Below the pieces are notes generated by a model. The model was not told the origin of the DNA. It ran no database searches and worked only from the letters and a program-made list of their open reading frames with translations. Below, one piece after another: positions 7,374-13,260 of a DNA stretch of 64,000 bases. Made by a program: the position numbers and the translations under genes. The DNA comes from Solibacteraceae bacterium (GTDB taxonomy: Bacteria > Acidobacteriota > Terriglobia > Bryobacterales > Bryobacteraceae), in assembly GCA_026984795.1 (NCBI GenBank), contig JALSRK010000073.1, forward strand, positions 124,001-188,000. Direction: 5' to 3'. Within the stretch, counting starts at the first letter, position 1. Each line of letters opens with the position of its first letter.

Positions 7374-8489
7374 GTGATTACCGAGACGCAGCACGTTCAG
7401 TTCGACTCGTTGGGTCTGGACTCCGGCGCCACGCTGGAACCGGTGGACGTGGTCTACGAGACCTATGGCGAGCTGAACGCCGAGCGCTCGAACGCGATCC
7501 TGATCCTGCACGCCTTCACCGGCGACGCCCACGCCGCCGGCGTCAGCCGCAAGACCGGCAAACCCGGCTGGTGGGACAACATGATCGGCCCCGGCAAGGC
7601 CTTCGACACGGAGAAGTACTTCGTCATCTGCTCCAACGTGCTCGGCGGCTGCATGGGGACCACCGGCCCCAGCTCGACGAACCCGAAGACGGGCAAGCCT
7701 TACGCCATGGAGTTCCCCGTCATCACCATCGCCGACATGGTCCGGCTGCAGCGGATGCTGATCGACCATCTCGGCATTGACCGGCTGCTCGCGGTGGCCG
7801 GAGGATCGATGGGCGCGATGCAAGCGCTCCAGTGGACGGTGGATTACCCGGACCGCGTGGCGGCGGCGATCCCTATTGCCGGAACCTGGCGGCACAGCGC
7901 GCAGCAGATCGCTTTCAACGAAGTGGGCCGCCAGGCCATCATGGCCGATCCGGACTGGAACGGAGGCGATTACTACGGCGGGAAGGGCCCGGCCCGGGGC
8001 CTCGCCATCGCCCGCATGATCGGCCACATTACCTACATGAGCGACGAGTCGATGCGCGAGAAGTTCGGCCGCCGCCTGCGGGAGAAGGAGAAGTTCGGCT
8101 TCGACTTCGAGATCGACTTCGAGGTCGAGAGCTACCTGCGTTACCGCGGCACCCAGTTCGTCGGCCGCTTCGACGCCAACTCGTACCTCTATATCACCAA
8201 GGCGATGGACTACTTCGACATCACCAACGGCAGCGGCTCGCTGGCCGCGGCGCTGGAGCACACCCAGTCCCGGTTCCTGCTGATCAGCTTCACTTCGGAC
8301 TGGCTCTACCCGAGCTACCAGTCCCAGGAGATCGTCAACGCCCTCCGCGGGCGCAACAAGGACGTCGCCTATTGCGAGCTGTCGTCCAACTACGGCCACG
8401 ACGCCTTCCTCGTCGAGGTGGGTGAACAGACCGAGGTAGTGCGGGGCTTCCTGGCCAGCACTTACCGGATGCTCGGAGGCAACAAGTAG
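7374..8489 (+). CDS. metX: Homoserine O-acetyltransferase MetX
   Basis: Acylates homoserine from acetyl-CoA (or another acyl-CoA) in the first committed step of methionine synthesis. The 371-residue alpha/beta-hydrolase fold protein shows the family signatures [19 protein letters not shown] and [12 protein letters not shown]. The nucleophile elbow is [12 protein letters not shown] (Ser145), with Asp309 (SDWLYP) and His342 (YGHDAFLVE) completing the triad. The start is GTG. metW follows 15 bases downstream, the classical metX-metW pair. Acetyl versus succinyl specificity cannot be settled by eye. Confidence 0.95.
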
Positions 8490-8504
8490 AGGGGTGGAGG
8501 TGGG

Positions 8505-9134
8505 ATGCCGCTAGCCGCTGAGTTGTACCGCGGGCCTTTCGTCCGGCAACTGCTCGGCCGAAGCGACTACCGCATCATCAGCGAGCTCATCGAGCCCCGC
8601 GCCCGCGTGCTCGACCTCGGCTGCGGCGACGGCGAGCTGCTGGCCTGGCTGGCCGAGAACAAGAACGTGGACGCCCGCGGCATCGAGATCGACCGCACGA
8701 AAGTGCAGCGGGCCATCGCCCGCGGCGTCTCCGTCTACCAGGGCGACATCGACCAGGGCCTCACCGACTACCCTGACCGGGCCTTCGACTATGTGATCCT
8801 CAGCCAGACCTTGCAGGAGACCCGGCGCCCCCTCTGGGTGCTGCGCGAGATGCTCCGGGTCGGCCGCCGCGCCATCGTCGCTTTCCCGAACTTCGGCCAC
8901 TGGCAGGTCCGCCTGGCGCACCTCTTCAGCGGCCGGGCTCCGAAGACGAAGCTGTTCCCCCACAACTGGTACGAGTCGCCGAACGTCCACTTCCTGACAG
9001 TGAAGGATTTCGAAGAGCTGGTGGATCAGGAAGGCTGGAAGGTGGAGCGCCGCATCTGCCTGGCTGGCAGCCACACCATCTCGTTCCTGCACAACCTTTT
9101 CGCCGAGGTCGCCGTCTTCATGATCAGCAGTTGA
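8505..9134 (+). CDS. metW: Methionine biosynthesis protein MetW
   Basis: A 209-residue class I methyltransferase-fold protein that accompanies metX. The SAM-binding motif I is VLDLGCGDGELLAWL near residues 35-50, with an acidic end of strand 2 (GIEIDRTKV). It is reported to act together with MetX in homoserine acylation in several bacteria, although its own reaction is not firmly established. GGTGGAGGTGGG just upstream supplies a ribosome site. It ends six bases from the convergent propeller gene. Confidence 0.92.
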   Translation: MPLAAELYRGPFVRQLLGRSDYRIISELIEPRARVLDLGCGDGELLAWLAENKNVDARGIEIDRTKVQRAIARGVSVYQGDIDQGLTDYPDRAFDYVILSQTLQETRRPLWVLREMLRVGRRAIVAFPNFGHWQVRLAHLFSGRAPKTKLFPHNWYESPNVHFLTVKDFEELVDQEGWKVERRICLAGSHTISFLHNLFAEVAVFMISS

Positions 9135-9140
9135 GGTTCC

Positions 9141-10472
9141 TCAGGCCGAAACTCTCTTTTCCCGGCGTTCCGGCGCGGACGGATTCGGCTCGCCGCTCGA
9201 GCCGTGGCCGGCCACGATCCCGCTGATGTCGATCAGGTAGAGCTGGCGCCCGTGGCCGCCATGGGGCGAGTCGATCGAGACCTTCCGGCCGTCGGGGCTG
9301 AAGCGCGGGTGGGTGTCGCAGCGCCACTCGCCGCGGTACTCGGGCGGAGAATAGAAATCGCCGAGCGGGACTTTCCGCCTGGTGGCCACTTCGTAGAGGT
9401 AAACATGCTGCCGCCGCTCCCGGTCCGGATAGGTGTCGTTCAGGATCCAGCGGTTGCCGGGCAGGTAGGTGCAGTGGCCGTTGCGGGTCATCACGCCCAG
9501 TCCGACGGGCTCGACTTTGCGGGTTCCGTCGGTGTAAAGGTAGAAGGCCGAGCCGTGGGACGGATGCCAGGCCCAGGCCAGCACCGTCGAGGCATCCCGC
9601 CAGATGAAGTGCGACGTGTAGCCATACGGGTCGAGCACGTAGGGGTCGGAGCCGTCCGGGGCGATGGTGAACATCCGGGTCAGGTAGCGCCGGTCGCCCG
9701 GCGCGCGCCAGCGGTGCAGAAAGATGAGCCGCCGGCCGCCGGGGGCAACGAGGAGGTGGTTGAACCAGTGCTTGGCCCGTCTGAGATCGAGGCTGTTCTC
9801 GATTCCTCGCCGGGGCGCCCCCTCGGGCAGCTCGAACGCGATCCCGGCCGCCTGGGCCAGCGAGAAGATCAGCTGCTGGCGGCCGGTGGCCAGGTCCAGC
9901 CGCCAGATGCCGTCGTCCTCCGGCGCGAGAACGTCCCGGTTCTCGTCCGGAACCCCGGCGTAGCCATAGCCGGGCCGCGTGTCCTGAAGGCGGCTGAAGC
10001 TGGGGCGGACGGCCCACTTGCCGTCGGGTGACAGGGCGTAGATGGGCGCCGGGATCGTGCGGCGGCGGCCGGTCTTGACATTGAGGATATGAGCGATGAA
10101 GCGCCCCTCTGCCCGGTCGTTCCAGATCACCTCTTCGGCCGAGCCGGGCAGCCACTGCAGCATGCAGCCCTGCTGCCAGCACCAGGCCCGAGAGCGGCCC
10201 AGTTCGATCCACCGGTCGCCGCCGCCGGTGTCCACCATGCCGACGCGGATCTCGTCGCCGGAACGCGGCGAGCGGTGCTCGAAGTCCACTTCGTTGCTCA
10301 GCACGTAGCGGCACGATGGATCGAACTGGAGCTTGTCGTAGTAGCCGAACCAGTGGAACTTCGGCCCGCGGGTGATGGCCCGGACCGGCGGGAGATCGTG
10401 GCCTGCGGCGCGGGAAGGCAGACCGGCGGCGGCGAAGATCCCGAGCATCCGCCGGCGCGAGATCGGCGCCAT
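9141..10472 (-). CDS. Tat-exported beta-propeller protein (TolB/oligogalacturonate-lyase-like)
   Basis: A 443-residue protein with a Tat-type leader (SRRRMLGIFAAAGLPSRAAG). It then has repeated WD40/TolB-like blades: FHWFGYYDKLQFDPS, YALSPDGKWAV, HLLVAPGGRRLIFLHRW, MFTIAPDGSDP and HPRFSPDGRKVSIDS. The HWFGYYDK start and the repeated His-containing blades recall propeller proteins annotated near polysaccharide degradation, for example oligogalacturonate-lyase-like ones. No catalytic function can be assigned. Its start ATG lies six bases after TAGACT, so it may be leaderless. It is divergent from pduS. Confidence 0.75.
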   Translation of the reverse strand: MAPISRRRMLGIFAAAGLPSRAAGHDLPPVRAITRGPKFHWFGYYDKLQFDPSCRYVLSNEVDFEHRSPRSGDEIRVGMVDTGGGDRWIELGRSRAWCWQQGCMLQWLPGSAEEVIWNDRAEGRFIAHILNVKTGRRRTIPAPIYALSPDGKWAVRPSFSRLQDTRPGYGYAGVPDENRDVLAPEDDGIWRLDLATGRQQLIFSLAQAAGIAFELPEGAPRRGIENSLDLRRAKHWFNHLLVAPGGRRLIFLHRWRAPGDRRYLTRMFTIAPDGSDPYVLDPYGYTSHFIWRDASTVLAWAWHPSHGSAFYLYTDGTRKVEPVGLGVMTRNGHCTYLPGNRWILNDTYPDRERRQHVYLYEVATRRKVPLGDFYSPPEYRGEWRCDTHPRFSPDGRKVSIDSPHGGHGRQLYLIDISGIVAGHGSSGEPNPSAPERREKRVSA

Positions 10473-10478
10473 GCCGAT

Positions 10479-10484
10479 AGTCTA
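10479..10484 (-). promoter_or_regulatory. -10-like box of the propeller gene
   Basis: TAGACT on the minus strand, six bases before the ATG at 10472, with no Shine-Dalgarno. Confidence 0.35.
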
Positions 10485-10556
10485 CCGCAGCCCTGGTCCT
10501 TCTCCGGCGCAGAACGGGCGGCATGGTAACCTGGATCGTTTAAGAACCGGGATGTC

Positions 10557-11867
10557 ATGCTGAAAGAGCAGCTCAAACAGATGGGCGTGGTCGGCGCCGG
10601 CGGGGCGGGCTTCCCCACCTACGTGAAGGCCGGCTCGCAGGCCGAGATCATGCTGGCCAACGGCGCCGAGTGCGAGCCGCTGCTGCACAAGGACTTCGAG
10701 ATCATGCGCCACTTCCCGGCCCAGATCCTCGCCGGGATGGAAGCGATGATGGGGGCCGTCGGCGCCCGCCGGGGAATGTTCGGAATCAAGGAAAAGAACC
10801 GCCCGGCGATCGACGCCATCCGCCCGGAAGCCGAGAAGCGGGGCATCGAGCTGGTCTTCCTGGGAGACTTCTACCCCTCGGGCGACGAGTACGAGCTGGT
10901 CTATACGGCCACCGGACGGCTGATCCCCCCGGCGGGCATCCCCTTGCAGGTCGGCTGCGTGGTGAACAACGTCGAGACGCTCTACAACGTGCATGAGGCC
11001 GCCGAGGGCCGCCCGGTGACGCGCAAGTTCGTCTCGGTCAGCGGCGCGGTGCGGTCGCCGAAGTCCTTCTGGGTCCCGGTAGGTACGCCGCTGCGGGAAG
11101 TGCTGGGGCTCGCCGGTGGAGCGACGGCGCCCGAGTTTGGCGTCTTCGTCAGCGGCATCATGATGGGGACTTTGACCTTCGATCTGGAGCAGCCGGTGAC
11201 GAAGACCACCGCCGGGCTGATCGTTCTGCCGCGGGAGCACTATCTGGTCCAGCGCAAGAGCCGGCCGGCCAGGGCCATGGCCCACATCGGCAAGTCGGCC
11301 TGCGACCAGTGCAGCTACTGCACAGAATTCTGCCCCCGCTACCTGCTCGGCTACGAGGTGATGCCCCACCGGGTGATGCGCACCCTCGGCTTCACCCTGG
11401 CCGGGCACGACAACTGGAACCAGTGGGCGCAACTCTGCTGCGCCTGCGGGCTATGCACCCTGTACGCCTGCCCCGAGGACCTGTATCCAAAGGAAGCCTG
11501 CGACCAGGCCAAGGCGGACCTGAAGGCCGCTGGCATCAAGTTCGAGCAGCAGACGCCGGTCAAGGTACACCCGATGAAGGAGGCGCGCCGCGTGCCGCTC
11601 GCCATGCTGCGCAAGCGGTTGAAGATCGAAGAGTACGAGGGCGAGGCGCCGTTCGATGCTGTCGAGCACGAGCCTCAGCGGGTGCGGCTGCTGCTCTCGC
11701 AGCACGTCGGCAAGCCGGCCTCGCCGGTGGTCAGCGAGGGGGACGAGGTGCAGCCGGGGCAGGCGGTGGCCGAAGTCGGTGAGGACGATCTGGGCGTGAA
11801 CATCCACGCCTCGATCGGCGGCAGGGTGGCCGCCGTCACCGACAGCTACATCGAGATCGAACGCTAG
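10557..11867 (+). CDS. pduS: PduS-like cobalamin reductase / RnfC-family flavoprotein
   Basis: A 436-residue redox protein of the RnfC/NuoF-like family. The N-terminal nucleotide/FMN loop is VVGAGGAGFPTYVKA (11-25). An SLBB-like domain lies around 155-230. Two ferredoxin-type clusters follow: CDQCSYCTEFC (Cys249, 252, 255, 259) and CCACGLCTLYAC (within 294-305). A C-terminal lipoyl/RnfC-like barrel completes it (from about 355). In propanediol microcompartments PduS reduces cobalamin and binds the shell protein PduT. Here pduT follows eight bases downstream, which strongly supports PduS over RnfC. No diol dehydratase or other pdu/eut enzyme is in the window. Confidence 0.85.
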   Translation: MLKEQLKQMGVVGAGGAGFPTYVKAGSQAEIMLANGAECEPLLHKDFEIMRHFPAQILAGMEAMMGAVGARRGMFGIKEKNRPAIDAIRPEAEKRGIELVFLGDFYPSGDEYELVYTATGRLIPPAGIPLQVGCVVNNVETLYNVHEAAEGRPVTRKFVSVSGAVRSPKSFWVPVGTPLREVLGLAGGATAPEFGVFVSGIMMGTLTFDLEQPVTKTTAGLIVLPREHYLVQRKSRPARAMAHIGKSACDQCSYCTEFCPRYLLGYEVMPHRVMRTLGFTLAGHDNWNQWAQLCCACGLCTLYACPEDLYPKEACDQAKADLKAAGIKFEQQTPVKVHPMKEARRVPLAMLRKRLKIEEYEGEAPFDAVEHEPQRVRLLLSQHVGKPASPVVSEGDEVQPGQAVAEVGEDDLGVNIHASIGGRVAAVTDSYIEIER

Positions 11868-11875
11868 GAGCCGAG

Positions 11876-12430
11876 ATGGCGAACCGCAATTCCATTGGAC
11901 TGATCGAGCTGGGATCGATAGCCGCCGGATTCGAGGTGACCGACGCCATGCTGAAGGCGGCCGACGTGGAGCTGGTCGTGGCCCGGTCCATCTGCTCAGG
12001 GAAGTACATGGTGCTGGTGCGGGGCGACGTGGCGGGCGTCGAAGCAGCGGTGGCGGCCGGTTCGGAAGCCGGCGGCTTCTCGGTGATCGACACCTTCGTG
12101 ATCCCCAACGTGCACGCCTCGGTCTTCCCGGCGCTCTCCGGCGTGACCAAGGCCGAGCATCTGGAGGCGCTGGGCATCATCGAGAGCTTCTCGGTGGCTT
12201 CGCTGATCGAGGGCGCCGACGCCATGGCGAAGTCGGCCAACGTGCGGCTGGTGGAGGTCCGGCTGGCGATGGCCCTGGGCGGCAAGGCCTTCGCCTCCTG
12301 CACCGGCTCGGTGGCGGCGGTGCGGGCGGCGGTGGACAACGGCGCCGAAAAGATCGCCGCCAAGGGCCTGCTGGTGAACAAAGTGGTGATCCCCAACCCG
12401 CGGCCCGAGCTGCAGAACGAGATGATCTGA
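11876..12430 (+). CDS. pduT: PduT-like tandem BMC shell protein with Fe-S cysteine
   Basis: A 184-residue microcompartment shell protein with two BMC domains (about 5-85 and 98-178), each starting with an IGLIE/LGIIE-type strand. The loop SICSGKYMVLV carries Cys40, at the place where PduT trimers hold a [4Fe-4S] cluster in the central pore (compare TICPGKF in PduT). The C-terminal PNPRPEL also matches PduT. The spacing to pduS implies translational coupling. Together they would carry electrons across a shell. No pentameric vertex protein or other shell gene lies nearby. Confidence 0.88.
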   Translation: MANRNSIGLIELGSIAAGFEVTDAMLKAADVELVVARSICSGKYMVLVRGDVAGVEAAVAAGSEAGGFSVIDTFVIPNVHASVFPALSGVTKAEHLEALGIIESFSVASLIEGADAMAKSANVRLVEVRLAMALGGKAFASCTGSVAAVRAAVDNGAEKIAAKGLLVNKVVIPNPRPELQNEMI

Positions 12431-12513
12431 GCGGCCGGGGACGCACGGCCGCGGCTCCGAGCCGTGCCCGCCGGCGCGGCCGCCCCCGCTCCACATCGCC
12501 GGTTGCGGCGTGG

Positions 12514-12519
12514 TAATCT
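12514..12519 (+). promoter_or_regulatory. -10-like box before the rhomboid gene
   Basis: TAATCT, 12 bases before the ATG at 12532. The leader would be very short and there is no ribosome site. Confidence 0.25.
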
Positions 12520-12531
12520 ATCCAAACCGCC

Positions 12532-13260
12532 ATGTTCCCGGTCCGCGACAACATCCCGAGCCGGAACCCGCCCATCGCCACGTGGTTGCTGATCTTCGCC
12601 AACGCCCTGGTATTCCTGTTCGAGCTGGCGATGCCCGAGGCGACGCTCCAGCGCTTCTTCTACTACTTCGGCATCGTCCCGGCCCGGTACACCCATCCGG
12701 ATTGGGCTATGTGGGCGGGCCTGCCGGTAGATGACTACTGGCCGTTCCTGACCAGCATGTTCCTGCACGGCGGCTGGATGCACATCATCGGCAACATGTG
12801 GACGCTGTGGATCTTCGGCGACAACGTCGAGGACCGCATGGGGCCGGTCCGGTTCACCGTCTTCTACCTGCTGTGCGGCATCGCCGCGGGGATGGTTCAC
12901 TGGTTCACGAATCCCCACTCGACGATTCCCACGGTGGGCGCCTCCGGAGCCATCGCCGGCGTGCTGGGGGCTTACTTCTTCCTGTTCCCCACCGCCCGCG
13001 TGGTGGTGATGGTGCCGCTGCTGTTCCTCCCGTTCTTCTTCGAGTTGCCGGCGGTCGTCTACCTGGCCTTCTGGGCGCTGACGCAGGTCTTCAGCGGGAC
13101 GCTGGCGCTGGCCAGCCCGCAGAACGTGGGGGGAGTGGCGTGGTGGGCGCACGTCGGCGGGTTCCTGACCGGCGTCGTGCTCCATTTCCTCTTCGTGCGC
13201 CGGGGACGGTCGTACCGGCGGCCGGCCCGCGACGAGTTCGGCTGGGAGGCCGGCTGGTGA
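12532..13260 (+). CDS. Rhomboid-family intramembrane serine protease
   Basis: A 242-residue protein with about six transmembrane helices. It has the rhomboid HGGWMHIIGNMWTLWIFG segment after helix 1, the catalytic GASGA (Ser138) and AHVGGF (His207). It cleaves single-span membrane proteins within or near the bilayer; targets are unknown. It is followed 39 bases later by a ClpP-fold membrane-associated protease gene in the same direction, so the two may act together in membrane protein turnover. Confidence 0.93.
   Translation: MFPVRDNIPSRNPPIATWLLIFANALVFLFELAMPEATLQRFFYYFGIVPARYTHPDWAMWAGLPVDDYWPFLTSMFLHGGWMHIIGNMWTLWIFGDNVEDRMGPVRFTVFYLLCGIAAGMVHWFTNPHSTIPTVGASGAIAGVLGAYFFLFPTARVVVMVPLLFLPFFFELPAVVYLAFWALTQVFSGTLALASPQNVGGVAWWAHVGGFLTGVVLHFLFVRRGRSYRRPARDEFGWEAGW

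What the first reader, a model, noticed from the sequence alone, without database searches (positions are those of the whole stretch)
10557..12430. Isolated pduS-pduT pair outside any microcompartment operon
PduS carries the nucleotide loop and two ferredoxin-type clusters, and PduT keeps the pore cysteine (Cys40 in SICSGKY) that binds a [4Fe-4S] cluster in known PduT. They are eight bases apart. No signature enzyme, vertex protein, other hexamer shell gene or B12 gene is in the surrounding 10 kb; neighbours are propeller, rhomboid and protease genes. It is either a satellite locus serving a shell encoded elsewhere, or a stand-alone redox device in which PduT trimers hold a cluster without a full shell.
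Basis: partly seen in the sequence, partly recalled or inferred. Interest (0 to 1): 0.6.

Follow-up and report, generated by a model that had tools for sequence, protein, structure and literature searches.

The report
Satellite redox genes of split microcompartment
This two-gene pair most likely makes an electron outlet for a protein-shelled compartment whose other genes sit elsewhere in the same soil-bacterium genome; the parts are known but this scattered arrangement is little described.

Summary
The pduS-pduT pair is real, intact and isolated, but not a stand-alone device. The same genome encodes a shell at two other places: aldolase, BMC-H and three BMC-P on contig C74, and BMC-H plus acylating aldehyde dehydrogenase 106 kb away on the window's contig. 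No second pduST and no PduL were found. In 61 genomes PduS and PduT orthologues occur in the same 24, always adjacent. Of 74 genomes with this PduT, 70 have BMC-P, 3 more another BMC-H, and 1 (81% complete) neither. Isolation is the rule: of 47 named loci with fair flanks, 46 hold no other BMC gene. Cys40 is kept in 100 of 100 loci (89 distinct sequences). So it is a conserved satellite locus of a scattered class II aldolase metabolosome in Bryobacterales, seen also in Ignavibacteria. Inferred mechanism: PduS oxidises lumenal NADH and PduT's pore cluster passes electrons out. Eight of 14 PduST genomes tested have neither radical diol enzyme family tested, so those are not its general client; the window's genome does hold a lone B12 diol dehydratase. 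New variant of a known kind.

The parts
10557..11867 (+). pduS, 436 aa, NADH-dehydrogenase-like flavo/Fe-S protein
   Evidence: Pfam PF01512, SLBB, Fer4_17, RnfC_N; AlphaFold model (mean pLDDT 76.7, Fe-S region under 50) best matches RnfC, then NuoF-type chains
10584..10616 (+). glycine-rich loop GVVGAGGAGFP of PduS
   Evidence: direct reading; seven positions checked, identical in 96 of 99 PduS, gaps in the other 3
11301..11471 (+). two tetracysteine motifs of PduS (C249/252/255/259 and C294/297/300/305)
   Evidence: seven cysteines 99 of 99, C305 98 of 99 with one gap; each 15 below the C. freundii motif positions given in PMC2982820
11670..11849 (+). RnfC_N barrel-sandwich domain at the C-terminus (N-terminal in RnfC, so permuted)
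   Evidence: Pfam PF13375; RnfC 33-83 aligns to PduS 376-427
11876..12430 (+). pduT, 184 aa, tandem-domain BMC-T shell protein
   Evidence: two PF00936 matches; phmmer to PduT structures
11891..12112 (+). first BMC domain of PduT
   Evidence: PF00936 at C73:135891-136112
12167..12400 (+). second BMC domain of PduT
   Evidence: PF00936 at C73:136167-136400
11993..11995 (+). codon of the pore cysteine Cys40 of PduT
   Evidence: direct reading; Cys in 100 of 100 PduT loci, 89 distinct sequences

Best explanation
pduS-pduT is a conserved satellite locus of a metabolosome whose genes are scattered over three places: (A) class II aldolase, BMC-H and three BMC-P; (B) BMC-H and CoA-acylating aldehyde dehydrogenase; (C) pduS-pduT. 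The three make one compartment in trans. Shown: presence, intactness, co-occurrence with the shell, separate location. Inferred: the aldolase cleaves a sugar phosphate inside the shell to an aldehyde (lactaldehyde by analogy with PVM and GRM5), the dehydrogenase turns it into acyl-CoA plus NADH, and PduS, docked on PduT, oxidises that NADH through FMN and two [4Fe-4S] clusters and passes the electrons out through the [4Fe-4S] cluster in the PduT pore, so that NAD+ is renewed in the lumen without an alcohol dehydrogenase. I put the satellite claim at about 0.9 and the electron-export role at about 0.5.
For: Shell genes elsewhere in the same genome, one block on the same 288-kb contig. PduS and PduT orthologues in the identical 24 of 61 genomes, adjacent in all; 21 of the 24 also have the block B AldDH. 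BMC-P in 22 of those 24, against 25 of 37 without PduST (Fisher p 0.03); inside the window's family 21 of 22 against 6 of 15, p 0.0003; neither corrected for kinship. BMC-P in 48 of 50 further genomes with this PduT; the two others have another BMC-H. PduS and PduT distances agree with those of AldDH and RecJ (Spearman 0.30-0.53 over 21 genomes, permutation p 0.005 or less): mostly vertical inheritance beside the shell. Redox residues kept. PduS model resembles RnfC/NuoF. C. freundii PduS is an NADH-oxidising FMN/[4Fe-4S] protein that co-purifies with PduT; potentials -262/-150 mV (PduS) and +99 mV (PduT) (PMC2982820, passages) run downhill from NADH (-320 mV, recalled). No PduL in the genome; no alcohol dehydrogenase recognised on reading the ORFs of blocks A and B of this genome.
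Against: 25 of 61 genomes have BMC-P without PduST, so export through PduST is not indispensable. Alcohol dehydrogenases elsewhere in the genome were not searched for. No expression, localisation or biochemistry. That these PduT trimers join this shell is assumed. The genome has a lone B12 diol dehydratase that could be a client. PduST presence follows kinship (0 of 18 in family f3), so the counts are not independent.
Confidence: 0.6

Rival explanations
1. Corrin reductase: PduS serves the B12-dependent diol dehydratase encoded alone at C24, as in classical pdu systems.
For: The own genome has a complete diol dehydratase, a fused large+medium subunit (PF02286, PF02288) and small subunit (PF02287), with no BMC gene on that contig. 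C. freundii PduS reduces cobalamin (PMC2982820).
Against: Only 3 of 14 PduST genomes among the 41 searched have PF02286, and G021 has the enzyme without PduST (Fisher p 0.11). No reactivase large subunit over the PF08841 cut-off in 41 genomes, none at all in the own one.
Confidence: 0.12
2. PduS reduces lactaldehyde to 1,2-propanediol in the lumen, as was proposed for the PduS-like protein of the C. phytofermentans fucose/rhamnose compartment; in this genome the diol would go on to the diol dehydratase.
For: Class II aldolase in the shell block; the proposal is in print (PMC3557285, passages); own genome has a diol dehydratase.
Against: PduS has NADH-dehydrogenase and Fe-S domains and an RnfC/NuoF-like model, no alcohol dehydrogenase domain; 11 of 14 PduST genomes lack the diol dehydratase.
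Confidence: 0.1
3. Electron supply to a glycyl-radical activating enzyme.
For: Hypothesis printed for GRM compartments (PMC6325248); PF02901 over its cut-off in 4 of 41 genomes, all four with PduST (Fisher p 0.0099, uncorrected for kinship); one sub-cut-off match (G013) has no PduST.
Against: No PF02901 match in the own genome; 10 of 14 PduST genomes lack it.
Confidence: 0.04
4. Stand-alone redox device: PduT trimers hold a cluster without any shell.
For: No shell gene near the pair; G037 shows no shell gene besides PduT.
Against: 73 of 74 genomes with this PduT have another shell gene; G037 is 81% complete in 1030 contigs.
Confidence: 0.04

Closest known systems
pduS-pduT of PDU and GRM compartments
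   Same: Same two proteins, same order and adjacency, same cluster cysteines (PMC2982820 and PMC6325248, passages)
   Different: Here outside any compartment operon, and in 8 of 14 tested genomes without B12 diol dehydratase or glycyl-radical enzyme; PduT scores 121 bits on TIGR02526, under its 250-bit cut-off
ACI compartments of Acidobacteria subdivisions 4 and 6 (PMC8217296, section 8 read)
   Same: Class II aldolase with a C-terminal extension, BMC-P triplet, BMC-H, AldDh on a separate locus
   Different: No hydroxyacid dehydrogenase recognised in the own aldolase block; relatives here are mainly Bryobacterales; the paper's main text has no mention of PduS (find)
FRAG compartments (PMC8217296, section 8 read)
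   Same: Shell genes at several places with a BMC-P triplet; reported from Ignavibacteriae, where this pduST pair is also isolated
   Different: FRAG is defined by shell-protein composition, which was not tested here
PVM-like loci of Candidatus Solibacter usitatus and Melioribacter roseus (PMC4207490, passages)
   Different: The passages seen do not mention an isolated pduST
GRM5-like fucose/rhamnose compartment of C. phytofermentans (PMC3557285, passages)
   Same: Class II aldolase, acylating AldDH, PduS and PduT together
   Different: It has the B12-independent dehydratase, alcohol dehydrogenase and PduL in one locus; no PF02901 or PF06130 match in this genome

Membership tests
PduS | PF01512, SLBB, Fer4_17 and C-terminal RnfC_N | tested here: met
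   all four over the Pfam cut-off, in that order
PduS | two tetracysteine motifs and GxGxxG | tested here: met
   against positions given in PMC2982820
PduS | FMN, NADH oxidation, binding to PduT | not testable with these tools
   needs protein
PduT | tandem PF00936, standard (not permuted) order | tested here: met
   two full-length matches, profile 1-75 each
PduT | pore cysteine of the [4Fe-4S] cluster | tested here: met
   Cys40, aligned with 3nwg and 3pac; 100 of 100 loci
PduT | NCBIfam TIGR02526 eut_PduT cut-off | tested here: not met
   121.1 bits against 250.3; so PduT-type BMC-T, not the narrow equivalog
BMC satellite locus | insufficient shell set, contiguous shell genes, another locus with BMC-H and BMC-P in the genome | tested here: met
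   definition from PMC4207490 (passage)
ACI compartment | class II aldolase, BMC-P triplet, BMC-H, AldDh on a satellite | tested here: met
ACI compartment | hydroxyacid dehydrogenase PF00389/PF02826 in the main locus | tested here: inconclusive
   not recognised among the ORFs of the 6.6-kb contig C74, which is too short to exclude it; no genome search done
ACI/FRAG compartment | shell-protein subclades of the catalog | not tested
   catalog HMMs not on hand
PDU compartment | B12 diol dehydratase inside the BMC locus | tested here: not met
   dehydratase exists but alone on C24

The most novel reading that the evidence does not exclude
PduST is an autonomous trans-shell electron-export cassette: it renews NAD+ in a compartment that has neither PduL nor an encapsulated alcohol dehydrogenase, sends the electrons to respiration, is kept as its own transcription unit, and has moved between phyla as a two-gene unit onto already existing shells (L088/L091).
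Probability: 0.3. Interest if true: 0.62.

Novelty: new variant of a known kind. Interest (0 to 1): 0.42.

Why it matters
The function of PduS and PduT homologues in compartments without B12 chemistry is called an open question in PMC6325248 (passages). Here is a natural test set: 8 of 14 PduST genomes searched have neither PF02286 nor PF02901, yet the pair keeps its redox cysteines. If PduST still joins the shell there, electron export or NAD+ renewal becomes the leading role, testable with three small gene blocks.

Tried and rejected
Promoter and terminator scan of 10400-12600 gave nothing above shuffles. A shared genomic neighbourhood for pduST was sought: 8 of 231 pairs of 22 loci share a flanking gene within four genes; but block B without its own C5/RecJ gives 4 of 210, so this is background rearrangement, not a sign that pduST is unusually mobile. 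The window's propeller, rhomboid and protease genes gave no tblastn match (E 1e-20, half length) in the other loci compared; metX-metW recurs once (most of that output was warnings and was cut). Structure of protein C5: no convincing fold match (highest Foldseek probability among the 50 rows shown 0.28; best VIA Z 6.0 at 11.8 A rmsd). 'Stand-alone device' rejected by co-occurrence. Not seen in print: the listings of seven searches (the best 3 to 20 papers of each) and the passages read showed no paper on an isolated pduS-pduT locus; supplementary data of PMC8217296 and PMC4207490 could not be read and may list these genes. The PF02286 search had no positive among its 14 control genomes; the hit itself was checked by Pfam.

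Full report
Observation. pduS (10557-11867) and pduT (11876-12430) are intact, on the plus strand, 8 bases apart. PduS has the four Pfam domains listed for PduS in PMC6325248, with the RnfC_N domain at the C-terminus. In the solved RnfC proteins this domain is N-terminal, so PduS is a permuted relative. Its AlphaFold model matches RnfC best, then NuoF-type proteins; the cluster region itself is predicted poorly (pLDDT under 50). PduT has two PF00936 domains and aligns with PduT structures. It fails the narrow TIGR02526 cut-off, so I call it PduT-type.

The rest of the genome. The window is C73:124001-188000 of a 77-contig assembly, 97% complete. PF00936 gives PduT, one BMC-H on C74 and one on C73 at 242 kb; PF03319 gives three BMC-P, all on C74. 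C74 is only 6.6 kb and carries, on one strand, a class II aldolase (PF00596), BMC-H and three BMC-P. The 265-aa aldolase is longer than the 215-aa FucA chains of the PDB, and its tail resembles an encapsulation peptide (my reading). At C73:242 kb, 106 kb from pduT, a BMC-H is followed by a 627-aa aldehyde dehydrogenase related to acylating BMC enzymes (TIGR02518 561.7 bits, under its cut-off of 620; best PDB match 3k9d). There is no other full PduS or PduT match and no PduL. So three blocks, A (aldolase and shell), B (BMC-H and AldDH) and C (pduST), add up to one metabolosome.

Co-occurrence. In 61 genomes, orthologues of PduS (E below 1e-100) and of PduT (160 bits or more) occur in the same 24, on the same contig and adjacent. 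BMC-P is present in 22 of these 24. G025 lacks BMC-P but has another BMC-H and the AldDH; G037 shows only PduT. Without PduST, 25 of 37 have BMC-P and 12 do not. In 50 more genomes reached from named PduT loci, 48 have BMC-P; G066 and G079 have another BMC-H. In total 73 of 74 have some other shell gene. The completeness of the 50 is not told.

Isolation is the rule. By the coordinates, PduST shares a contig with another shell gene in 3 of the 24 genomes: here (106 kb apart), G027 (31 kb) and G028, where PduST (45-51% identical) sits in a compact locus. The scan of named genomes gave 80 loci (the best 80 of 478 confirmed): mostly Bryobacterales and other Acidobacteriota, then Ignavibacteria and Melioribacteraceae, and a few others. 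PduS lies beside PduT in 79 of 80 (in L087 within 1.8 kb by frame calls, in the rest next to it); L092 has PduT after a KdpD-like gene instead. Flanks are often cut by contig ends: 47 of 80 have at least 3.5 kb upstream and 4.5 kb downstream, and of these only L161 (Desulfuromusa kysingii) holds other BMC genes by my own profiles. L088 has one weak AldDH match of 27 bits at its contig end, not counted.

Evolution. Block B keeps the order AldDH-C5-RecJ in 21 of 21 loci, while pduST flanks are shared by 8 of 231 pairs; block B without C5/RecJ is equally scrambled, 4 of 210. PduS, PduT, AldDH and RecJ distances agree, so inheritance is mainly vertical. PduST of two Ignavibacteria-labelled assemblies (L088, L091) nests in the Acidobacteriota-majority clade (nearest nodes 0.84 and 0.87, one deeper node only 0.44, the whole clade 0.94-0.95), although their BMC-P genes lie two plus one on separate contigs, as in several other Ignavibacteria. 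That suggests transfer of the pair alone, if the labels are right.

Conservation. Cys40 of PduT is present in 100 of 100 loci, 89 distinct sequences; eight cluster cysteines of PduS in 99 of 99 apart from one gap at C305. They are exactly 15 positions below the C. freundii motif cysteines.

Client. The own genome has a complete B12 diol dehydratase, large and medium subunits fused, small subunit next to it, alone at C24. Of 14 PduST genomes in the 41 searched, 3 have it, 4 have a glycyl-radical enzyme (G017 both), 8 have neither. Six of these eight are at least 95% complete. Corrin reduction or activase reduction therefore cannot be the general task. NADH oxidation with electron export is what remains, and the published potentials allow it. 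Against: 25 genomes have the shell without PduST. The link with radical enzymes (6 of 14 against 1 of 27, p 0.004, uncorrected for kinship) may mean only that PduST carriers live with less oxygen, since PduS clusters are oxygen-labile.

Known or new. Satellite loci, ACI and FRAG compartments, and PduS-PduT as an electron outlet are all in print. What I did not see in the seven literature searches is the isolated pduST pair as a conserved satellite in Bryobacterales and Ignavibacteria. Supplementary tables were not readable, so it may be listed there. Verdict: new variant of a known kind, moderately interesting.

Noticed in passing
L162:8573-11186 (G000:C24): Lone B12 diol dehydratase with fused large and medium subunits (749 aa) and small subunit (PF02287), no BMC gene on its contig; PF02286 also in G010, G017, G021 (4 of 41 genomes); no reactivase over the PF08841 cut-off in the 41.
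   Followed up: partly
L009:12334-12834: C5, a 166-aa protein with an acidic tail between AldDH and RecJ in 21 of 21 block B loci; no Pfam or NCBIfam match; model of mean pLDDT 86.6 without a convincing PDB match.
   Followed up: partly
L009:11816-12334: AldDH carries a roughly 170-aa C-terminal tail: a linker with helix-like stretches, then a conserved block like DFVCExDVRxAI...IGPKTIVTPAAREL in 15 aligned proteins; it recalls the EutT N-terminus (recalled, not tested).
   Followed up: no
L088, L091: Ignavibacteria-labelled PduST nested among Acidobacteriota PduST: possible transfer of the pair between phyla (one deeper node weak).
   Followed up: partly
L092:8500-10555: pduT without pduS beside it, downstream of a KdpD-like gene (name from my reading); its genome (G071) has BMC-P.
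   Followed up: no
window 7374-9134 and L166:3027-4756: metX-metW lies near pduST in the window and near block B in G025, the only such recurrence seen; may be chance.
   Followed up: no
L207 (G015:C30): G015 has a second compartment fragment with a BMC-T, BMC-P genes and the only PduL found in 41 genomes.
   Followed up: no
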